Positions 1,852-11,109 of a stretch of 64,000 nucleotides of DNA are shown here, piece by piece. Position 1 is the first letter of the stretch. Each line of letters starts with the position of its first letter. This DNA is from Methanomassiliicoccales archaeon (lineage in GTDB: Archaea; Thermoplasmatota; Thermoplasmata; Methanomassiliicoccales; UBA472). The stretch is from contig JAPKYJ010000022.1 in NCBI GenBank assembly GCA_026394375.1, positions 61,777 to 125,776 of the forward strand, given 5' to 3'. The position numbers and the translations under genes were made by a program. The notes under the pieces are model-generated. The model was not told where the DNA came from. It searched no databases and saw nothing but the letters and a program-made list of their open reading frames with translations.

Positions 1852-2387
1852 GAGAAGCCGCCAAGTACATCATCAACGAGGCACAGCGGGCACTGGACCG
1901 GGTGGATGACAAGTCACTAGATCAATTCGTAGACTCGATAATCGCCGCCAAGAAGGTGTTCGTCTACGGTGTGGGGAGATCTGGCCTGGTCGCTCGGGCA
2001 TTCTCCGTGCGTCTGGTGCAGATGGGCCTGGACGTGCATTTCATCGGGGAAACGACAACGCCGATCGTGGAATCGGGTGATCTGGTCATCATCATCTCCA
2101 ACACCGGTGAGACCATGTCCGCGGTGCAGACGGCGAACATCGTCGGCAGGATCGGGGCCAAGGTGGCGCTGGTCACCAGCTCGGGCCATTCCAAGCTCGG
2201 TAGTGCTTCCAACATCGTCGTGGAATTGCCGATCCACACGGACGAGAACAGGCCTCGTCTGGCGCCCCTGGGCACGCTGTTCGAGGCTGCATCATATCTA
2301 CTGCTCGATTCCCTGGTGCCGGTGCTCATGGAGAGGCTGAAGCAGACCGAGAGCTCCATGCGCAGGCGGCACGCCATCTGGGTCTAG
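1848..2387 (+). CDS. hxlB: 6-phospho-3-hexuloisomerase, SIS domain
   Basis: A 179-residue single SIS-domain protein. It has the hallmark VYGVGRSGLVARAFSVRLVQMG segment, the GETTTP motif and the phosphosugar-binding serine loop in IISNTGETMSA, plus the C-terminal FEAASYLLLD helix. The size matches archaeal PHI, which interconverts 3-hexulose-6-phosphate and fructose-6-phosphate and in archaea supplies ribulose-5-phosphate for nucleotide synthesis. No hexulose-phosphate synthase is next to it. It is translationally coupled to the upstream endonuclease IV-like gene. Its stop overlaps the convergent JAMM gene by four bases. Confidence 0.85.
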   Translation: MREAAKYIINEAQRALDRVDDKSLDQFVDSIIAAKKVFVYGVGRSGLVARAFSVRLVQMGLDVHFIGETTTPIVESGDLVIIISNTGETMSAVQTANIVGRIGAKVALVTSSGHSKLGSASNIVVELPIHTDENRPRLAPLGTLFEAASYLLLDSLVPVLMERLKQTESSMRRRHAIWV

Positions 2388-3055
2388 GGCCCAGTCGACT
2401 CATTCTCAGGTGGCGAAGAGCCCTCCGTCTTCAACCTCCGCCTCTTCACCGTTTCCCCGAAGTAAGGGTTCTGGTACTGGTCCCAGTAGACGGCGAACGG
2501 TCTGCGGACCGCTCTTCCCTTTTCAATGCAGAAGGCCTCAATCTCCTTGTGGATGGGGTCGATCACCAGAGCGGAATGATATCTCTCGCTGAACATGGCG
2601 GTCTGGGTATCCACATCCGTGGGCGAGAGGAAGCATCTGTGCCCTGGGTGGGAGTGATACCAGCCTAACAGGATGTAGCTGAAACCGCAGTCATCGATGG
2701 AGGCAAAGAGCCTTTCCATGCCTTCCCGCTGGAACCGCACTCTGACCGACGAAGCCTCCAGGTCCGTGGTGGCCACGTCCCGCACCAGGGAATACATCAC
2801 GTCTCCATTCCGGTAGACGTTGCCCAGGAGGAAGCCCATGACCTCCAGCCGGTCCTGGGCGGCGCTCATGGCATGGTTCCGTATCTTCTCTTCCGATAAC
2901 TTGGAGACATACAGCTCCAATCTGTCGTTCTTCCGTTCGTATTCCTGCTTAGAGCGTTCGCCCAGCCATTTGTGAGAGGTCCTGCGCTCCCCGGGCGGAG
3001 GGGGGCGCTCCTCGATCTTGGCCTCGCTAGCTGCCACGACGCTCGGAGGTTTCAA
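2384..3055 (-). CDS. JAMM/MPN+ isopeptidase of a ubiquitin-like system
   Basis: A 223-residue protein with the full JAMM zinc-protease signature: Glu71 in LEVMGFLLG, then His134-Ser-His136, seven residues, Ser144, and Asp147 (HSHP..S..D). Active JAMM proteins cleave isopeptide bonds or trim ubiquitin-like C termini, as Rpn11 and archaeal HvJAMM1 do. The first ~60 residues are a charged, proline-containing extension. The start is taken as TTG at 3055, which overlaps the stop of the E2 gene (TTGA) and has GGTGG upstream. A longer open frame reaching 3259 lies wholly on top of the E2 gene and is rejected. It is the last gene of the E1-Ubl-E2-JAMM cassette, so a role in removing the Ubl encoded at 3562-3801 is inferred. 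Confidence 0.88.
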   Translation of the reverse strand: MKPPSVVAASEAKIEERPPPPGERRTSHKWLGERSKQEYERKNDRLELYVSKLSEEKIRNHAMSAAQDRLEVMGFLLGNVYRNGDVMYSLVRDVATTDLEASSVRVRFQREGMERLFASIDDCGFSYILLGWYHSHPGHRCFLSPTDVDTQTAMFSERYHSALVIDPIHKEIEAFCIEKGRAVRRPFAVYWDQYQNPYFGETVKRRRLKTEGSSPPENESTGP

Positions 3056-3561
3056 TGGGCGCGCACCACCTTGGGCTGGGGGAGAGTGGCCAGTGGCGGT
3101 TGCGGCACCTTTCGGGTGTTGAAGTACTGCGCGGCCTCTGTGCAGGAAGGGGTGCCGAATGGGCTTCCTGGATTGGGATTGAGCAGCAAGTACTCGATGC
3201 CTTTGATGAACATCAACAGGGTGGAATTGAAACTCCAGCCATCCAGCTGCTTGCTGCATAGCAATCCTCCATCCTCAGGCAGCATCACGTTGGGATGGAA
3301 GATGGGGGTGCACCATACCACTTGGGGCTTGACGAATGGGTAATCCTCGGAGATGGTCATGCGGAAGCGATGATGGAAGCGGCGTCTGATCTCTCCGTTG
3401 ACCTTCTCGCAGGCGGGGATCTGCACCAGGCTGACCTCGATGTCCAGCGGCATCTCATTCAGCCCCTCAGCATGTATTTCGATAGGATGCCTCAGGCATC
3501 TCTGGCAGATGTTGAGCTCGTTACGGATGCGTGCCAACAGCACATCCCTGGGCAACGGCAT
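3052..3561 (-). CDS. E2-like ubiquitin-conjugating enzyme (UBC fold)
   Basis: A 169-residue protein with the whole linear pattern of a classical E2: YPF at 74-76, the HPN tripeptide at 89-91, the predicted catalytic Cys102 in GLLCSKQLDGWS, Trp109, and the NPNPGSPF segment that follows the active site in eukaryotic E2s. A C-terminal tail of about 20 residues is proline-rich. E2 enzymes take Ubl as a thioester from E1 and pass it to lysines. The ATG follows the Ubl stop with no gap, and the stop overlaps the JAMM start. E2-like genes are rare in archaea outside Asgard and Caldiarchaeum lineages; a diverged RWD or inactive E2 is unlikely because Cys and HPN are both kept. Confidence 0.9.
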   Translation of the reverse strand: MPLPRDVLLARIRNELNICQRCLRHPIEIHAEGLNEMPLDIEVSLVQIPACEKVNGEIRRRFHHRFRMTISEDYPFVKPQVVWCTPIFHPNVMLPEDGGLLCSKQLDGWSFNSTLLMFIKGIEYLLLNPNPGSPFGTPSCTEAAQYFNTRKVPQPPLATLPQPKVVRAH

Positions 3562-3801
3562 CTAGCCGCCCTCGGGGTCCGGCAGCAGCTCCAGCTCATC
3601 AGCTTCCGCGATGCCAGATTCCAGGACGGTGTGCTGGCCTTTGAGCAGCCGCTTGCCCCTTCTGATGACATAGGCTCCCGGGTCCTTCTCCCAATAGCCG
3701 GCCGCCCCCTCGATGATCTCGTGGACCGTGTTCTCGCCCTCCAGTTCCATGTCCACCGTGGAGCCGGTCTCGGCGTTCCTCACGCGTATGTGCACAGACA
3801 T
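3562..3801 (-). CDS. Ubiquitin-like modifier with C-terminal Gly-Gly
   Basis: A 79-residue beta-grasp protein that ends exactly at Pro-Glu-Gly-Gly followed by the stop codon, so the di-glycine is exposed without processing. The stretch RRGKRLLKGQHTVLESGI aligns by eye with the ubiquitin segment around AGKQLEDGRTLSDY, closer to ubiquitin than to MoaD or ThiS-type SAMPs. The ATG at 3801 is chosen because GTGATC, matching the archaeal anti-Shine-Dalgarno, sits at 3804-3809. An upstream in-frame ATG at 3885 adds 28 residues without family character. It lies between the E1 and E2 genes. Predicted role: the modifier that is adenylated, charged and conjugated. Confidence 0.9.
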   Translation of the reverse strand: MSVHIRVRNAETGSTVDMELEGENTVHEIIEGAAGYWEKDPGAYVIRRGKRLLKGQHTVLESGIAEADELELLPDPEGG

Positions 3802-3833
3802 CCGATCACGAGCCCTTTGACCGGCAGGGTGTT

Positions 3834-3843
3834 CATTAATCTT
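3834..3843 (-). promoter_or_regulatory. Candidate promoter for the Ubl-E2-JAMM genes
   Basis: The 100-base gap between the E1 stop and the Ubl start is AT-rich. AAGATTAATG on the minus strand is centred about 37 bases before the Ubl ATG. It could give an internal transcript with a leader of about 10 bases holding the GTGATC ribosome-binding site. The genes may also be read through from E1. Confidence 0.35.
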
Positions 3844-3901
3844 ATCTATCACAGTTAGCCTAGCTGATAATACGAATAACGGCAAGCCAGAGCTCGATAT
3901 C

Positions 3902-4690
3902 TCAGCGCGGATGAACGGGGCAATCCTCGTCCAGGGGGACCTCGAAGACCTCGCTCGTGTTCTTCAGCCCGTTGTAGAACATTATGTGCTTCAAGCATTC
4001 GTTCCTCAGGCCGCTCACGATCTTCAGACCCTCCCTCACCTGGATGGCAGCTATGACGCTCGTGGTGGTGATCTCCGCCGCCAGTTTTGGCTTGAAATAG
4101 GAGACCTCTGAACCAGAGCAGCTGTATCGCTTCTCCAGCACCCTAGAATGCGTACGATTGGTAGCGCATTGCAGGCAAGGTGTGTCGGGAGGCAGCACCA
4201 CCTGCACTTTTCCGCTGGAGGACGAGGTCCCGCCGTCGATGTACGGAACGCCACAGAGATAAGAATGGGCGTTCAGGTGCATCCGCGCCGCGATGTTGTC
4301 CAGGCAGCCGAAGACCAGATCGTGCGCCCGGAACTCGCCTTCCGCCAGGTCTTCGATACGAGCTTCTATTGCCAAGATTTCGACCTCTGGATATAGTTCC
4401 TTCGCGCGCTCTGCCACCGTGGATGCTTTCGACGCTCCCCCTGCGACATCGCTCTCTCGGAAGAAGAGGCAACGGTTCAAGTTCGAGCGAACCACGTGGT
4501 CCATGTCCACTACTGTGATCCTGCGAAAGCCGGAGAGCACCAGGTCCTTGACGACCTCGTTGCCTAAGGCACCTGCTCCCACAACCAGGCACTTCTTCCT
4601 CTGCACCGCCTCCATGTCGATCCAGCTCACGCGGCGGGAGCGCTCGAAGCGGTCCGCATCCTGAGCGCCGACCAAGAGGGAGGTTGGCAT
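3902..4690 (-). CDS. E1-like Ubl-activating enzyme (ThiF/MoeB/UBA superfamily)
   Basis: A 262-residue single-domain adenylating enzyme. It shows the nucleotide-binding GAGALGNEV at 38-46, the acidic DMD at 62-64, the NLNR motif at 70-73 and CLDN at 129-132. CxxC at 172-175 and CPVH at 257-260 look like zinc ligands. Cys191 in RYSCSG precedes the KLAAEITTTSVIAAIQ helix, which is where E1 enzymes place the thioester cysteine. It should adenylate the Gly-Gly terminus of the neighbouring Ubl. ATG at 4690 is chosen because a TATA-like TTTTCTAA at 4712-4719 sits about 26 bases upstream; a GTG three codons earlier is possible. MoeB or UbaA-type sulfur carrier activation is the main alternative, but linkage to E2 and JAMM argues for conjugation. 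Confidence 0.88.
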   Translation of the reverse strand: MPTSLLVGAQDADRFERSRRVSWIDMEAVQRKKCLVVGAGALGNEVVKDLVLSGFRRITVVDMDHVVRSNLNRCLFFRESDVAGGASKASTVAERAKELYPEVEILAIEARIEDLAEGEFRAHDLVFGCLDNIAARMHLNAHSYLCGVPYIDGGTSSSSGKVQVVLPPDTPCLQCATNRTHSRVLEKRYSCSGSEVSYFKPKLAAEITTTSVIAAIQVREGLKIVSGLRNECLKHIMFYNGLKNTSEVFEVPLDEDCPVHPR

Positions 4691-4763: not shown

Positions 4764-5873
4764 CTAGATCTTGAAGAGCACCAGGGCCATGAATAGCACG
4801 TACAACAGCCCGCCCATCATCAGGCCGGACATGTGCAGTTCGCGATGGCTCGATCGCCAGTAGAGCATTGAGCCAGACAGGAGGGCGATACCGATGGCGC
4901 TGGCCTGCAGGAATTGGACCGGGTTATCCAAGGATATGTGCCAGTCCGTCAGCAATATACCGATGGTCACCGGGATGCAGCTCTGGAAGACCATTGCGCC
5001 CGTGATATTGCCTATGGCATAGGTGTCCTTGCCCTCTCGTATCCAAAGCAGGGAGTTGAACTTCTCCGGCAGCTCCGTCGCGATGGGCGCAATGATCAGC
5101 GCCAGAATGAGCGGATTGAGGCTGATTGCCTCCGCCACGGCGTTGATCTGCTGCACGAAGATGCTTGCGCCTAGGATGATTGCCAGCAGGCCCATGATCA
5201 ACTGCGCGAAGATGAGGTAGGTGGGAGGCTCGGTCCTATAAACTGCCTTCCGGAACGCCTCGCTCACATCGTCCGCCAACATCTCCTTTTCGTCAACGGA
5301 GCCGTTCGTGCGACCGCTTCTGACCCGGTCGACATACTTCTGGAAATGGAGGCATTTCAGGTCGCCTTCCTCGCACGCTCCGTCCTTGCATTTGACGGTG
5401 ACGTACATGTAGTAGATGTAAAGTGGGATCAAGGAAACGCCCACGATCCAGCGGAGGATGGACAGCTCTGGCGGCACGAACGCAGCCAGGACCGCCAGAA
5501 GATACGCCAGGAGGAAGAACCTCAGGTCTCGGCGGATGAGCTTGCCATTGATATGCAAAGTGCGCGTCCTCCGGCGCTTGGCGAATATCAGCAGCGCCAA
5601 CCCGCAAACGAACATGGCCAGGGTGGCGAGCATGAACGGCGCTCCTAGTATCGCCCCCACTCCGATATCCTGTCCCGAGTCCCCGCCCACGAAGAGGATG
5701 GCTATGAGAGGGATGAGCGTCTCCGGCATGGCCGTTCCCACGGCGGCGAGCACGCTACCTACCGCTCCCTCGGAGAGCTTGAAGCGCCTGCCCACCCATT
5801 CCACGCTGTTGGTGAAGTATTCGCAGCCCACCAGGATGATGGCAAAGCTGACCAGGAACAGGAGGACGTCCAT
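4764..5873 (-). CDS. Sodium/calcium exchanger family membrane antiporter
   Basis: A 369-residue polytopic membrane protein with about ten hydrophobic segments. It carries the two inverted alpha-repeat signatures of the CaCA superfamily: GTAMPETLIPLIA near residues 47-59 in the first half, and IAPIATELPEKFNSL in the second half, whose acidic residues bind the cation. A hydrophilic loop with four closely spaced cysteines or acidic groups (KCKDGACEEGDLKC) separates the halves. It resembles YrbG/CaxA-type exchangers that extrude Ca2+ in exchange for Na+ or H+. It lies on the same strand as the Ubl cassette, 73 bases upstream of the E1 start, and could be co-transcribed, but no functional link is evident. 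Confidence 0.85.
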   Translation of the reverse strand: MDVLLFLVSFAIILVGCEYFTNSVEWVGRRFKLSEGAVGSVLAAVGTAMPETLIPLIAILFVGGDSGQDIGVGAILGAPFMLATLAMFVCGLALLIFAKRRRTRTLHINGKLIRRDLRFFLLAYLLAVLAAFVPPELSILRWIVGVSLIPLYIYYMYVTVKCKDGACEEGDLKCLHFQKYVDRVRSGRTNGSVDEKEMLADDVSEAFRKAVYRTEPPTYLIFAQLIMGLLAIILGASIFVQQINAVAEAISLNPLILALIIAPIATELPEKFNSLLWIREGKDTYAIGNITGAMVFQSCIPVTIGILLTDWHISLDNPVQFLQASAIGIALLSGSMLYWRSSHRELHMSGLMMGGLLYVLFMALVLFKI

Positions 5874-6024: not shown

Positions 6025-9000
6025 ATGCCGCGGCATGTTTCTTCGAAGTCCAGTTCCCCAGGCAGAGGAGCGGGTGCGACCGCTCTCCCGATGCTCGTGA
6101 TCTTGATCGCGGCTCTGATGATCGTCCCCTCCCTCATGGTCTCCTTGGACCTGAGGGCTCCAGAGGTCGGTCTGGACGCTCCTGTTCCGGCGACCAGTGA
6201 GGCCTCCTACCAGGCGAGATCCGGCGTGATACTCGCTTCGCATTCGGTCATCACAATCAACAACAACGCGCAGTTCGCCGCCAAGGCCTCCGCCGAAGGC
6301 TGGTCCGGATCTGGAACGGAAATGTGGCCATACATCATCCAAGGCTACCTGATCGACGGACAACGAGGGGGCAACTGCATCTACGTCGGCAACACGACCA
6401 TCTACTTCATAGTCCGCGATTGCGAGCTAACGAACGCCCGATCCGTGGCGAGCCCCTATAGAGAGGGGTCGGGGATATGTCTTTACAATGTGACCCATGC
6501 CACCGTCCAAAATAATTTCCTTTGGAACAGCGACAAAGGGGTGATGCTCGACGGCAAGGCGAACAACAATACCATCGAGGACAACTCAGCTAAGTACAAC
6601 TCCTATGGCCTCTACGGCGTCAACTGCAAGGATAACCTCATCCTCCACAACAATTTCTCCCATAACGACAACTACGGCATCCGCCTGAACACGGCCATGC
6701 GCAACAACCTGACCTCCAACGACTGCAGCTACTCTTCATATGGAATCTACCTGAGCAGCAGCCCGATCGGCAACACCGCCACCGATAACCTTTGCCAGCG
6801 GTGCAGCAGCTACGGCATCTATGTGAATGGTGGGGAGAAGAACCACCTGATCGGGAATGAGTGCTCTTGGGCGGGCAGCGCGGGCATCTACCTGTCATCC
6901 ACTCAATACAGCGACCTCGCCTACAACTCCATGTGGAAGGGCTCCATCTACATCACAGGTTACGTACTCTCCTACTACCTAACCCTGACCATCGATGCCT
7001 CCAACACCGTGAACGGAAAGCCGGTCCGGTTCTACAAGGACGCGAACGCGGCCAATGCCACCGTGCCCCTCAACACAGGCCAGGTCATCCTGGTCAAGAT
7101 GTCTTGGATAGGTGTGGTCGGGCTGGACCTGAGCGGTACGACCTATCCGGTATTGGTCTACTATTGCCAAGATGTTCAACTAACGGACAATGATCTCAGC
7201 GGAGCGTCATATGGAATATATGCCTTCTATTCAGAGAGACTGATCGTTCAGAACAATAGGATGACCTCATGCAGCACCGGCGTGATGGCAGAGTCGTGTC
7301 CTGGCCTCATTATCCAGGGCAACAATGCTTCCTCATCATCCACCGGTCTATACATCTACAGTTGCAGCGGAGCCAAGCTGATCGGCAACCAGCTCTACCA
7401 AAGCTCAATTGGCATCTACATCCAGTACAGCTATAGCTGCGAGCTCTACAGCAATGTGCTCACCAAGGGATCCATCGCTTTTTCGGAGGATGAACTCACA
7501 TTCTCCACCCAGATCATTCCCGCCAACAACACGGTAAACGGCAAGGAGATACTGTACCTGGCAAACGCCAACTACGGGAATGCTACCTTCGCGCCGGTGG
7601 TGGGGCAGCTCATCCTGGGCAACGTGAGCTGGGTCACCATCAGCGGGCTGGCCATGGATAACTCCACCTACGGCGTGCTCATGGGCTACTGCGACAACGT
7701 GACGGTCAGATCATCGATGTTCTCGGCCGTCACCTATGCCATCTACATACAATACTCCACCACCATCACCGTCGACGATGTCTCTACTTACGACGGCAGC
7801 TTCGGCGTCTATCTTACCGGCAGTACCAATTGCCTGATCAGCAATTCGTACATCACCCGGGCGTACTACTGCCTCTACCTGCAATACTCGAACTCGAATA
7901 CCATCTTCAAGGTCAACGCCACCTACTCCAATTGGGGCTATGGCGAAGGCGTCTACCTATACGAATCCCACGGAAACCTGATCAAGCAGTGTTCCCTGGG
8001 TCGGCACTACGATGCCATCTACGTGTATTACTCTGACTACAACACGGTCGAGGGCTGCACGTTCTATAGTGAATATCGATATGCGGTGTATTGGTACTAT
8101 AGCAATTACCTCACGCTCAATAGTAATCAGTTGTCTGGGTGTTCGTTCCTCGCTGAAGGGCCGTTTGAGGACTTCAGCACTACTTCCATGGCCGGCAACA
8201 CGGTGGACGGCAAGCCAATCTACTTCCTTGCGAACGCAGACCTGGGAGGATCGAGCATCCCGGTCGGAGACTACGGGCAAATATTCCTAGGAAACGTGTC
8301 CAATGCCCGGGTCACAGGGCAGAGCATTTCCAATATCAAGGTCGCCATGGTGCTTGGCTACTGTAATGCCATCCAGGTGGACGCGAACGACATCCACGAC
8401 TGCTATTACGGCATTTTCATCAAGGGCACGAGCAATAGCCAGATCCATGACAACACCTTCATGCACAATTCTTACTCCGTCTATGCATACTCCTCCAATA
8501 GTAATACCATCCAAGGAAACCAGTTCACCGGCGACTACAGCGATGGCATATACCTCAGCTACTCCCAGACGAACCAGGTGTTGGGCAACACCTTCACGGA
8601 CTGCTATTATGGAGTGGAAATCTACTCGTGTGGGGGAAACGTCCTCAGCTCCAACGCCTTCGTCAAGTGCTCTTTAATGATGAAAGGCACCAAGGACCAG
8701 ATGTCCTCTACCTCAGTGGAGACAAGCAACACGGTAAACGGTGGAAGCCTCCTCTATGTGAAGAACGCCGATCTCAATAACGCCACGATATCCACCACTG
8801 GCATAGGGCAGCTCATCCTATGCAACGTGCGCAATGCGCGAGTCACCGGCCTATCGTTGGCGAACAATTCTGTGGCGGTATTGATGGTGTACTCCTCAGG
8901 AATCACCTTGGACCATTCGAGCTTCTCCAACAACAAGTACTCCGTCTACACCTACTTCAGTGATCACTGCACGATAGCGAATTCCAGATCATCTAGCAGC

Positions 9001-11109
9001 CCATACGGATTCTATCTGTATGAGTCGGACTACAACCTTATCACTGGCTGCAACGTGACGGCTGCGAACAATTACGGAATTTGGATGCAATACGCGGACG
9101 GGAACGTGGTCACGAATTGCAGCACGGATACCAGCTACTACTCCATAGGTCAGCAATACTCTTTGGGCAACACCATCACGAACAATATGATCGCCCATGG
9201 CTCCTACCAGCTATATGCCTACAATTGCAGGTATGGAAGCATACGAGATAACACCTGTGAGCGGGGGTATTGTGCCATGTACGTATATGGAACCTGCTAC
9301 GATCTGACAGTGACCGGGAACCGGTTGTTCAACTCCTCGTGGTACGGGATCTATACCTCCGGGTGCAATGGCAACTTCTTCTTCGGCAACAAGCTCGTAG
9401 GCAACAGAGGTGCCGGCCAGGTCTACTCCTCCAGTCATGTGCAGGCCTACGACAGCGCGGACGGCCTGAACTTCTGGGACAACATCGCGGGCGTCGGCAA
9501 CTACTGGGGTGATTGGACCTATCCCGACGCGAACCACGATGGCATAGTGGATTATCCGTACGTTCTCACTGGAAGTGTCAAGAACAAGGACCGCTACCCG
9601 GTAAGTGACACCACTCCTCCCGAGCTGACGATCACCACCCCGACAGAAGGGCAGAGCGTGATGACCAGCGATATCGATGCCACCTGGAGCGGATCGGATA
9701 AACAATCGGGCATCTCGCACTACGAGGCGCAGGTCGACGATGGATCGTGGGTGAACCTTTCCGAGCAGACACACTATGCCCTAAGCCTCAGCGGAGGGCA
9801 GCATACTCTCGGCGTGAGGGCGTACGATCGAGCTTTGAACGTGAGGGAGAACCATGTAACGTTCGTCATCGTGAGCGTCCCGGATGCGCCGACGAACACG
9901 ATCGCGGTCGCCGGAGCATCGCAGGTAGTGGTCTCCTGGCATCCCGGTTATGATGGTGGCTCTGCCATCATAGAGTACCGCATACTCCGCTCGCTGGTCT
10001 CGGGCGACTACTCTGCGGCGGTGACGGCGGCCGTGGCACCAACGGCCACCACCTACGCGGATAGCGGCGTAACGGCCGGCACGACCTATTACTACGTCGT
10101 CAAGGCCAGGAACGCCAAGGGAGATAGCCTGGCATCGAACGAAGCCATAGTGGTCTTCGGCTCCGGTACTTTGCCTCCAGACTCGCCCACGTTGAGCCTA
10201 TCCGCATCACCCGTAGGCGCAGACTATGTCTGCCTTTCGTGGATCGCGCCGGGCAACACTGGCTCATCGCCCATAACCGCCTACAAGGTATATCGTGGCA
10301 CGCAGCCAGGTGGCACTTCCAGCTTGATTGCGACCATCACGGGAGCGGAAACGACCTACTATCTGGACTCAGGGCTTGCCGTGGGCATCTACTACTATCG
10401 GGTCAGCGCGGTCAACACCATCGAAGGGCCGAGATCCAATGAAGTGGTGGCGACCGCCGGTGCGGTCACAGGAGCGCCTGAAAAGGTGACCTCGATCAGC
10501 ACCAGCGGTCACGACAACCGCATCGACCTGAGCTGGAGCGCTCCGTCACAGGGAGCATCTGCCATCACTCAGTACCGCGTCTACCGCAGCACCGTGCCGG
10601 GGAACCTGGTGCTCATCGGCCTCCCCACCGGCACATCCTACACCGATGGCACGGTGACCAAGGGTCAGACCTACTACTACTGGATAGTGGCTGTGAATGC
10701 TCAAGGCCAGGGCCCGCTCTCTGGCCAGACGAAGGTCACGGCAACGGAGCCGCCGGCGAGCGACATGCTGCTGCCCATAATGCTCATCATCGTGGTAATC
10801 GCGGTGGTGGTGGTCTTCCTGTTGCTGATGAAGAGGAGGGGCAAGACCACTCCAATCCCCCCGAACCAACGAGGTCGAGCACGTGCAACAGGCCGTTTGT
10901 CAGGGGGAGAACGTGACCAAGAGCTGGAAAGGGATAAGGGGTTCACTCAGCCAGCGAGCCCGCCGCCACCGGGGACCCCGCCACCACCAACACCAGAGCC
11001 CAGGCCGGTGCCCACGCCCACAGTCCTCTGCCCCATCTGCGGCAGATCCTCCTTTTTCGTGCAGGGCATGGAGTTCTGTCCCGAGTGCGGGGCCAATCTG
11101 TTCAAATGA
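6025..11109 (+). CDS. Giant surface protein: NosD-like beta-helix, FnIII domains, TM segment and zinc ribbon
   Basis: A 1,694-residue predicted membrane-anchored exoprotein. Residues ~20-45 form a hydrophobic signal or anchor. Residues ~85-1190 are built from short N/S/Y/G-rich units such as NNTIEDNSAKYNSYGLYG, typical of right-handed parallel beta-helix (NosD/pectate-lyase-like) folds. An Ig-like module follows (~1200-1285), then three fibronectin-III-like domains starting near 1287, 1382 and 1482. A transmembrane helix spans ~1577-1602, then a proline-rich linker, and the last 26 residues form a CPIC..CPEC zinc ribbon predicted to be cytoplasmic. Within the helix a longer block beginning NTVNG or NTVDG recurs four times. 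GGTGGG precedes the ATG. Probable cell-surface adhesion or carbohydrate interaction; the ligand is unknown. Confidence 0.85.
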   Translation: MPRHVSSKSSSPGRGAGATALPMLVILIAALMIVPSLMVSLDLRAPEVGLDAPVPATSEASYQARSGVILASHSVITINNNAQFAAKASAEGWSGSGTEMWPYIIQGYLIDGQRGGNCIYVGNTTIYFIVRDCELTNARSVASPYREGSGICLYNVTHATVQNNFLWNSDKGVMLDGKANNNTIEDNSAKYNSYGLYGVNCKDNLILHNNFSHNDNYGIRLNTAMRNNLTSNDCSYSSYGIYLSSSPIGNTATDNLCQRCSSYGIYVNGGEKNHLIGNECSWAGSAGIYLSSTQYSDLAYNSMWKGSIYITGYVLSYYLTLTIDASNTVNGKPVRFYKDANAANATVPLNTGQVILVKMSWIGVVGLDLSGTTYPVLVYYCQDVQLTDNDLSGASYGIYAFYSERLIVQNNRMTSCSTGVMAESCPGLIIQGNNASSSSTGLYIYSCSGAKLIGNQLYQSSIGIYIQYSYSCELYSNVLTKGSIAFSEDELTFSTQIIPANNTVNGKEILYLANANYGNATFAPVVGQLILGNVSWVTISGLAMDNSTYGVLMGYCDNVTVRSSMFSAVTYAIYIQYSTTITVDDVSTYDGSFGVYLTGSTNCLISNSYITRAYYCLYLQYSNSNTIFKVNATYSNWGYGEGVYLYESHGNLIKQCSLGRHYDAIYVYYSDYNTVEGCTFYSEYRYAVYWYYSNYLTLNSNQLSGCSFLAEGPFEDFSTTSMAGNTVDGKPIYFLANADLGGSSIPVGDYGQIFLGNVSNARVTGQSISNIKVAMVLGYCNAIQVDANDIHDCYYGIFIKGTSNSQIHDNTFMHNSYSVYAYSSNSNTIQGNQFTGDYSDGIYLSYSQTNQVLGNTFTDCYYGVEIYSCGGNVLSSNAFVKCSLMMKGTKDQMSSTSVETSNTVNGGSLLYVKNADLNNATISTTGIGQLILCNVRNARVTGLSLANNSVAVLMVYSSGITLDHSSFSNNKYSVYTYFSDHCTIANSRSSSSPYGFYLYESDYNLITGCNVTAANNYGIWMQYADGNVVTNCSTDTSYYSIGQQYSLGNTITNNMIAHGSYQLYAYNCRYGSIRDNTCERGYCAMYVYGTCYDLTVTGNRLFNSSWYGIYTSGCNGNFFFGNKLVGNRGAGQVYSSSHVQAYDSADGLNFWDNIAGVGNYWGDWTYPDANHDGIVDYPYVLTGSVKNKDRYPVSDTTPPELTITTPTEGQSVMTSDIDATWSGSDKQSGISHYEAQVDDGSWVNLSEQTHYALSLSGGQHTLGVRAYDRALNVRENHVTFVIVSVPDAPTNTIAVAGASQVVVSWHPGYDGGSAIIEYRILRSLVSGDYSAAVTAAVAPTATTYADSGVTAGTTYYYVVKARNAKGDSLASNEAIVVFGSGTLPPDSPTLSLSASPVGADYVCLSWIAPGNTGSSPITAYKVYRGTQPGGTSSLIATITGAETTYYLDSGLAVGIYYYRVSAVNTIEGPRSNEVVATAGAVTGAPEKVTSISTSGHDNRIDLSWSAPSQGASAITQYRVYRSTVPGNLVLIGLPTGTSYTDGTVTKGQTYYYWIVAVNAQGQGPLSGQTKVTATEPPASDMLLPIMLIIVVIAVVVVFLLLMKRRGKTTPIPPNQRGRARATGRLSGGERDQELERDKGFTQPASPPPPGTPPPPTPEPRPVPTPTVLCPICGRSSFFVQGMEFCPECGANLFK

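What the first reader, a model, noticed from the sequence alone, without database searches (positions are those of the whole stretch)
2384..4690. Complete ubiquitin-like conjugation and deconjugation cassette (E1-Ubl-E2-JAMM) in a non-Asgard archaeon
Four adjacent minus-strand genes encode every core part of a ubiquitin-type pathway. There is an E1 with adenylation motifs and a candidate thioester cysteine. There is a 79-residue Ubl ending in Gly-Gly. There is an E2 with HPN and a catalytic-position Cys followed by the NPNP segment, and a JAMM protease with all zinc ligands. Ubl/E2 abut and E2/JAMM overlap, so co-expression is nearly certain. Known: such clusters in Caldiarchaeum, Asgard archaea and bacterial 6A/BIL/Bub-type operons. 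The context here looks Thermoplasmata-like, which is where novelty may lie (inference).
Basis: partly seen in the sequence, partly recalled or inferred. Interest (0 to 1): 0.95.

Follow-up and report, generated by a model that had tools for sequence, protein, structure and literature searches.

The report
Archaeal ubiquitin cassette with proteasome-linked RING
An archaeon from a group of methane producers outside the Asgard archaea carries four adjacent genes that resemble ubiquitin, its activating and conjugating enzymes and a ubiquitin-removing protease, and it encodes in its proteasome gene cluster a RING-finger protein that is likely the missing ligase, so it probably tags proteins much as our own cells do.

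Summary

Decay series tie the parts together. Ubls beside E1/E2 keep PDP(E/Q)GG (96 of 96 readable); 20 of 20 orphan Ubls have lost it. Seven genomes have a dead JAMM; all six readable Ubls there are encoded mature.

No E3 lies in the window. A C4HC3 RING protein (profile matches eukaryotic RING E3s, 2.5e-8) heads the proteasome-exosome operon: upstream of psmA in 48 of 49 cassette genomes examined, in 0 of 29 cassette-free ones; two more genomes have it without a found cassette. The kinship-aware test is weak (4 supported pairs).

A ubiquitin-like cascade is strongly predicted; RING as E3 and the proteasome link are inferred; no biochemistry exists. Ub/E1/E2/JAMM operons were mapped in 2018, so this is a new variant of a known kind; the proteasome-linked RING appears new in the papers searched.

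The parts
3902..4690 (-). E1-like ThiF-fold activating enzyme, 262 aa, adenylation domain only (no separate Cys domain or UFD reported)
   Evidence: Pfam ThiF 2.2e-50; best PDB match SUMO E1 UBA2 6.4e-27, ahead of MoeB 4.6e-18
4118..4120 (-). Codon of candidate E1 catalytic Cys191 in R-x-S-C-[TS]-G
   Evidence: C191 invariant in 18 rows; Cys in 86 of 87 E1 loci, the other unresolved, and in 8 of 8 further loci
3562..3801 (-). Ubiquitin-like modifier, 79 aa
3565..3570 (-). C-terminal Gly-Gly codons, encoded mature without a tail
   Evidence: sequence; invariant in A2
3052..3561 (-). E2-like UBC-fold conjugating enzyme, 169 aa
3289..3297 (-). E2 HPN motif, residues 89-91
   Evidence: invariant
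3256..3258 (-). E2 predicted catalytic Cys102
   Evidence: invariant; Cys in 89 of 89 E2 loci
2384..3055 (-). Rpn11-like JAMM protease, 223 aa, likely TTG start overlapping the E2 stop by 4 nt
   Evidence: JAB 1.1e-13; profile best match Rpn11 1.6e-22
2615..2656 (-). JAMM motif H134-S-H136 ... S144-x-x-D147 (Glu71 codon at 2843-2845)
   Evidence: invariant; intact in 79 of 86 scored JAMM loci

Best explanation
The four genes encode a ubiquitin-like modifier with its E1-like, E2-like and Rpn11-like enzymes, which are predicted to attach the modifier to target proteins and take it off again, likely with a RING protein encoded in the proteasome operon acting as the ligase. Inferred steps: the E1 adenylates the Ubl C-terminal Gly and probably forms a thioester at Cys191. 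The Ubl would pass to E2 Cys102. The RING protein, often with an N-terminal membrane helix, would bind the charged E2 and direct transfer to lysines. The JAMM would trim the short tail of those Ubls that have one and reverse conjugation. Because the RING gene opens the operon of proteasome alpha, SBDS and the exosome, the tag would feed proteasomal degradation. Shown here: the sequences, predicted folds, gene orders and coordinated loss. Not shown: any chemistry, any RING-E2 contact, or any delivery to the proteasome.
For: Families and folds. Conserved co-directional order: 38 of 40 order loci, two cut by contig ends; 65 of 80 named loci. E2 His and Cys in 89 of 89 loci; E1 Cys in 86 of 87, one unresolved. 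Modifier-cascade coupling: Ubl PDP(E/Q)GG in 88 of 90 cassette loci (one Ubl is off the contig, one frameshifted) plus 8 of 8 more; 0 of 20 orphan Ubls have it. JAMM-tail coupling: the six readable Ubls in the seven dead-JAMM genomes end exactly at GG; in genus g24 13 of 13 active-JAMM genomes carry a one-residue tail and the only dead-JAMM genome (G088) has none. RING: its profile matches eukaryotic RING E3s at 2.5e-8. It lies upstream of FtsZ-Pop5-like-PsmA in the window's own genome. Order-wide E2+RING+ 86, E2+ only 11, RING+ only 2, neither 48 of 147. Five of those 11 do have RING upstream of psmA by a more sensitive profile, and the other six have no assembled psmA upstream. At the psmA locus RING is present in 48 of 49 cassette genomes and 0 of 29 without. 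The operon neighbour FtsZ stays in G031, G034 and G035 when RING goes. Outside the order 8 of 19 chosen RING stretches also show PsmA. In one of 80 cassette loci (L098, outside this order by its low similarity; no E1 there) a protein ending in the same type of RING lies directly upstream of Ubl-E2-JAMM on the same strand.
Against: No biochemistry. The E1 lacks the separate Cys domain and UFD of canonical E1s. In the window the RING lies outside the cassette, and 79 of 80 cassette loci have no RING beside them. The RING-core profile matches 195 of 400 class genomes, many without E2, so RING as such is not specific. In the family only 1 of 22 genomes exceeds Pfam's RING cut-off. Weak RING hits exist in cassette-free G101, G104 and G106, not at psmA. 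G089 (68% complete) and G144 (91%) have RING without a found cassette. Co-loss is phylogenetically clustered: only 4 well-supported independent pairs (8 on the best tree), all one way if G089 and G144 are left out, sign test p 0.125; with them 4 of 6 go the same way and 2 do not differ. No unrelated control genes were counted on the tree. Seven of 67 RING cores, all in family f5, lack one zinc ligand, and 14 of 67 have no clear membrane helix. The tail-JAMM coupling rests on about two independent events; 28 active-JAMM loci also have no tail.
Confidence: 0.72

Rival explanations
1. A real E1-Ubl-E2-JAMM conjugation system, but E3-independent and unrelated to the proteasome; the RING/zinc-ribbon protein does something else in the exosome-proteasome operon and vanished in the same reduced lineages by coincidence.
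For: RING is not in this cassette, nor beside 79 of 80 others; losses cluster in a few lineages; RING-core matches are common outside the order without E2; f5 RINGs lack one ligand.
Against: RING is missing precisely at a locus whose neighbours PsmA and SBDS (and FtsZ in G031, G034, G035) stay; all supported independent changes go the same way once two genomes are set aside; best profile matches are RING E3s; one locus has the same RING type beside the cassette.
Confidence: 0.22
2. A sulfur-carrier system: the E1 only makes a Ubl thiocarboxylate for tRNA or cofactor sulfuration, and the E2-like protein is a non-catalytic partner.
For: The E1 is of minimal ThiF/MoeB size; such dual use is known for SAMPs and Urm1 (recalled).
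Against: Predicted UBC fold with invariant HPN and Cys; a second ThiF-family gene in the genome could serve sulfur transfer; Rpn11-like JAMM; the 20 orphan Ubls that lost GG are those without E1/E2.
Confidence: 0.05
3. An antiviral Bil/Bub/CBASS-like conjugation system.
For: Bacterial defence systems combine E1, E2, Ubl and JAB (recalled); PADLOC E1-E2 models hit the E1 (1.8e-15) and JAB models the JAMM (5.3e-7).
Against: No PADLOC or NCBIfam hit for the E2; E1 is 46.2 bits against a cut-off of 320 for the 6A-MBL model; the locus is stable, with SIS-domain and AP-endonuclease-like neighbours in 59 and 55 of 80 loci and ribosomal protein genes beyond in 34-40; 22 of 22 family genomes carry the E2.
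Confidence: 0.04

Closest known systems
Caldiarchaeum subterraneum Ub-E1-E2-srfp operon with adjacent Rpn11 (Hennell James 2017: section 6 and passages read; Fuchs 2018: section 6 and passages read)
   Same: Ubl, E1, E2, RING protein and Rpn11-like JAMM; pro-Ub tail removed by Rpn11 there, tails present in many relatives here
   Different: E1 here is an adenylation domain without separate Cys domain; RING is not in the operon but heads the proteasome-exosome operon; JAMM follows E2 on the same strand; Ubl is 21-23% identical to CsUb in structure alignments
JAMM-3 group of Fuchs 2018: prokaryotic JAMMs near Rpn11/CSN5; JAMMs closer to Rpn11 sit in operons with Ub, E1 and E2 homologs
   Same: gene content of the cassette; may include these JAMMs (taxa are not named in the text read)
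   Different: that text credits E3-like RING proteins to Caldiarchaeum and Asgard; here a dispersed RING is found
Haloferax SAMP / UbaA / HvJAMM1
   Same: archaeal Ubl, ThiF-type E1, JAMM
   Different: SAMP conjugation needs no E2 (PMC11354881, passage); E1 here scores 82 bits against a 450 cut-off for UbaA
Eukaryotic ubiquitin-proteasome system
   Same: UBC fold, Rpn11-like JAMM, RING resembling Arkadia/RNF165, genomic tie to the 20S alpha subunit
   Different: no UFD in the E1, no known chain type, no lid subunits seen (not searched); RING carries zinc ribbons and often a membrane helix

Membership tests
Archaeal E1/E2/RING ubiquitylation cascade (Caldiarchaeum/Asgard type) | beta-grasp modifier ending in or processed to Gly-Gly | tested here: met
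Archaeal E1/E2/RING ubiquitylation cascade (Caldiarchaeum/Asgard type) | UBC-fold E2 with HPN and catalytic Cys | tested here: met
   predicted fold
Archaeal E1/E2/RING ubiquitylation cascade (Caldiarchaeum/Asgard type) | E1 with separate catalytic-Cys domain | tested here: not met
   262 aa, ThiF spans residues 25-259, no other E1 domain reported; Cys191 is only a candidate
Archaeal E1/E2/RING ubiquitylation cascade (Caldiarchaeum/Asgard type) | Rpn11-like JAMM with intact zinc site | tested here: met
Archaeal E1/E2/RING ubiquitylation cascade (Caldiarchaeum/Asgard type) | RING protein inside the operon | tested here: not met
   RING-core profile finds a RING beside the cassette in 1 of 80 loci only (L098), with 20 of 20 control loci positive; in the window's genome RING is at another locus
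Archaeal E1/E2/RING ubiquitylation cascade (Caldiarchaeum/Asgard type) | E2~Ubl thioester and isopeptide conjugates | not testable with these tools
   needs biochemistry
RING-type E3 ligase (for the dispersed protein) | RING domain homologous to E3 RINGs | tested here: met
   profile matches RNF165/Arkadia 2.5e-8; 60 of 67 cores keep all eight ligands; the single-sequence Pfam RING score is below cut-off (20.5 against 27.3)
RING-type E3 ligase (for the dispersed protein) | E2 binding and ligase activity | not testable with these tools
   needs biochemistry
SAMP/UbaA sampylation | UbaA-type E1, no E2 | tested here: not met
   E2 present; UbaA model 82.2 bits against 450
Bacterial 6A/Bil/CBASS conjugation systems | hits above model cut-off to system-specific E1/E2 | tested here: inconclusive
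   6A-MBL E1 model not met (46.2 against 320); E2 without hits; PADLOC gives no cut-offs, and Bil/Bub models as such were not identified in the libraries

The most novel reading that the evidence does not exclude
A complete ubiquitin-proteasome pathway exists in Thermoplasmata. A co-transcribed E1-Ubl-E2-Rpn11 module works with a RING E3, often membrane-anchored, that is made together with the 20S proteasome alpha subunit and the RNA exosome. E3 and proteasome were thus already genetically coupled in a non-Asgard lineage, and several descendants have dismantled the whole pathway step by step.
Probability: 0.5. Interest if true: 0.92.

Novelty: new variant of a known kind. Interest (0 to 1): 0.8.

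Why it matters
Ubiquitin signalling is central to eukaryotic cells, and its archaeal roots are usually traced through Asgard and Aigarchaeota. A conserved, syntenic version across Methanomassiliicoccales and other Thermoplasmata, with a cultured member (M. luminyensis has the E2), gives a tractable euryarchaeal system and another point for reconstructing the ancestral pathway. A RING encoded with the proteasome makes the question of when ubiquitin-like tags became proteasome signals directly testable. The decay series offers a natural genetic dissection of which parts depend on which.

Tried and rejected
Rejected: an E3 hidden between E1 and Ubl (the insert in L054, L057, L059 and L065 is an unrelated divergent gene); defence island (stable housekeeping synteny); sulfur carrier only. 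My first pattern for a RING beside the cassette could not have matched this RING type, so its empty answer was dropped; the profile search replaces it and found one of 80. RING specificity at class level did not hold: the profile hits many E2-free genomes, often in proteins of about 1500 aa. Fisher tests ignore kinship; the kinship-aware test is much weaker, so I do not lean on the Fisher values. Without result: (same pattern problem; read by eye), second half (pattern error gave zero; redone, where 2 hits had no readable core). A ThiS search in the own genome found one hit below cut-off (20.7 bits against 22.5), so whether a second sulfur-carrier Ubl exists is open. The Pop5-like gene is named by eye and has no Pfam hit. 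A tree placing E1, E2 and JAMM among eukaryotic, Asgard and bacterial relatives was not built, for lack of those sequences. The PAN ATPase and lid subunits were not searched. Fold searches list ubiquitin, SUMO, ISG15 and others at similar Z; none is excluded by them.

Literature limits: PMC open-licence papers only. Eight searches ran: Methanomassiliicoccales or Methanomassiliicoccus with ubiquitin; Thermoplasmat- with ubiquitin-conjugating; RING finger, proteasome, exosome, superoperon. In their listings, several capped, I saw no title or abstract start reporting this cassette or the RING; Fort 2015 reports the JAMM alone. Sections read: PMC4571572 section 9, PMC5654768 section 6, PMC6043591 section 6. 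Passages only: PMC4453063, PMC4327156, PMC12660748, PMC11354881, PMC11188069, PMC7203096 (of which only the first part is held). The supplements of Hennell James 2017 (Cluster III) could not be read and may list these operons. Burroughs/Iyer/Aravind RING surveys are recalled, not read.
Full report
WHAT IS THERE. The window lies in contig C22 of a 1.73 Mb genome that is 99.8% complete. Named relatives of its E2 are mostly Methanomassiliicoccales or Methanomassiliicoccaceae. Four minus-strand genes follow one another: E1 4690-3902, Ubl 3801-3562, E2 3561-3052, JAMM 3055-2384. The Ubl stop touches the E2 start, and the likely JAMM TTG start overlaps the E2 stop by 4 nt.

DISTRIBUTION. The E2 is found in 22 of 22 family genomes, 97 of 147 order genomes and 28 of 30 genera, and 120 of 400 class genomes, 55 of them outside the order. 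Gene order E1-Ubl-E2-JAMM holds in 38 of 40 order loci, the other two being cut by contig ends. Of 80 named GTDB loci 65 show all four genes in this order on one strand; in 15 a gene is missing, cut off or distant. In four loci a divergent unrelated gene sits between E1 and Ubl. The surroundings are stable: a convergent SIS-domain gene in 59 of 80 loci and an AP-endonuclease-like gene in 55 of 80, with ribosomal protein genes beyond.

A NATURAL EXPERIMENT ON THE MODIFIER. I read the active sites of 90 order loci with E1 and/or E2, and 20 orphan Ubls. Of the 90, 88 Ubls end in PDP(E/Q)GG with 0-10 further residues. The other two are a Ubl off the contig (G067) and a frameshifted one (G131). Eight further loci agree. 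Of the 20 orphan Ubls (G031, G055 and 18 genomes of genus g25) none keeps the Gly-Gly. E2 keeps His and Cys in 89 of 89. E1 keeps Cys in 86 of 87, one unresolved. Outside the order, in family f11, two E2-like proteins without cassette were read: G163 lacks the Cys, and G151 has a Cys one place off. So within the order the C-terminal Gly-Gly is kept exactly where an E1/E2 is there to use it.

A NATURAL EXPERIMENT ON THE PROTEASE. In 79 loci the JAMM motif is intact; 51 of these Ubls carry a tail after GG and 28 do not. In seven genomes (six of genus g22, plus G088 of genus g24) the JAMM-like gene remains but its zinc-site motif is gone. The six readable Ubls there end exactly at GG. In g24 all 13 active-JAMM genomes read have a one-residue tail and only G088, with the dead JAMM, has none. 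This fits the demonstrated Rpn11 processing in Caldiarchaeum (PMC5654768, section 6 read). It rests on about two independent events. The window's own Ubl needs no processing, so its JAMM is best seen as a deconjugase (inferred). G055, G061 and G065 show a later stage: relic E1 and dead JAMM side by side without E2.

THE MISSING E3. A RING search of the family found weak but consistent hits in 16 of 22 genomes, one of them over cut-off, and in 0 of 14 controls. The protein has a C4HC3-type RING core, C-x2-C-x(11-14)-C-x-C-G-x2-[FYS]-H-x2-C-x(5-6)-C-x2-C in most, followed by zinc ribbons. In 53 of 67 distinct cases it has a hydrophobic N-terminal stretch of membrane-helix type; 60 of 67 cores have all eight ligands, and 7, all in family f5, lack one. 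Its profile matches eukaryotic RING E3s best (RNF165/Arkadia 2.5e-8). Sources that name it call it hypothetical, double zinc ribbon or, once, an RPABC4/Spt4-type protein. A RING beside the cassette is rare, 1 of 80 loci, but telling: in L098, which has no E1 there, an 1831-aa protein that ends in the same type of RING lies directly upstream of Ubl-E2-JAMM on the same strand.

LINK TO THE PROTEASOME. In the window's genome the RING gene (L151 7800-7027) is followed on the same strand by FtsZ, a Pop5-like gene (named by eye), proteasome alpha, SBDS, Rrp4 and two RNase PH-type exosome genes, with gaps of 11-133 nt as far as the first of these. PsmA is in 143 of 147 genomes. At that locus RING is upstream in 48 of 49 cassette genomes examined; in G088 it lies with the Pop5-like gene about 16 kb away on the same contig. 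It is absent in 29 of 29 cassette-free genomes with at least 1.5 kb upstream; two with less were not scored, and G089 and G144 have RING but no cassette found. The cassette-bearing loci were partly chosen because RING had been found there. The unchosen order-wide count is E2+RING+ 86, E2+ only 11, RING+ only 2, neither 48 of 147. Five of the 11 have RING by the better profile; the other six (G019, G023, G062, G064, G134, G140) have no assembled psmA upstream. PsmA and SBDS, and FtsZ in G031, G034 and G035, remain where RING is gone. Outside the order I fetched 19 chosen RING stretches: 8 show PsmA near RING, and three more show FtsZ up to the contig end.

HOW STRONG IS THE CO-LOSS. On a PsmA tree of 82 genomes the cassette changes 10 times and RING 8. 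On supported branches there are 4 independent pairs, all in the same direction, when G089 and G144 are left out (8 on the best tree), p 0.125; with them 4 of 6 go the same way and 2 do not differ. This is suggestive, not proof. At class level the RING core is not specific: 195 of 400 genomes match, many without E2.

WHAT IS KNOWN. Fort 2015 (passages) noted the Rpn11-like JAMM of M. luminyensis, in the passages seen without the other genes. Grau-Bove 2015 (passages) speaks of toolkits in three archaeal lineages; [quoted passage not shown] Fuchs 2018 (section read) describes a JAMM-3 group, operons with Ub, E1 and E2, and E3-like RINGs in Caldiarchaeum and Asgard. So the cassette as a kind was seen before.

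VERDICT. Ubiquitin-like conjugation and deconjugation: strongly predicted. RING as its E3: likely. Proteasome targeting: plausible. No activity has been shown.

Noticed in passing
L136 1789-2505 (+), L137 2411-3127 (-): In family f11 divergent E2-like proteins stand without E1/Ubl/JAMM beside them; G163 lacks the catalytic Cys and G151 has a Cys one place off, like archaeal UEVs.
   Followed up: partly
L098 2-5494 (+): 1831-aa protein with a C-terminal RING directly upstream of Ubl-E2-JAMM, at a locus without E1; proteins of about 1500 aa with the same RING type occur widely in the class.
   Followed up: partly
window 3052-3081 (E2 C-terminus) and 2966-3001 (JAMM N-terminus): Two conserved short motifs of unknown role: E2 tail P-x-P-K-V-V-R and a JAMM N-terminal P-P-x4-R-x3-H-x-W stretch.
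   Followed up: no
L269, L270, L271: G061, G065 and G055 keep a relic E1 and a degenerate JAMM side by side with no E2, a late decay stage.
   Followed up: partly
L115 3470-7189: MAG VGTL01 holds a second Ubl-E2 pair with a distant E1-like gene and no JAMM match, a possible paralogous system.
   Followed up: no
window 6025-11109: 1694-aa predicted surface protein, right-handed beta-helix-like repeats plus Fn3-like domains and a C-terminal zinc ribbon (read by eye).
   Followed up: no
window 4764-5873: Na/Ca exchanger gene ends 73 nt upstream of E1 on the same strand; co-transcription possible.
   Followed up: no
L054, L057, L059, L065 between E1 and Ubl: A divergent gene of 275-293 aa interrupts the cassette in some Thermoplasmata.
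   Followed up: partly
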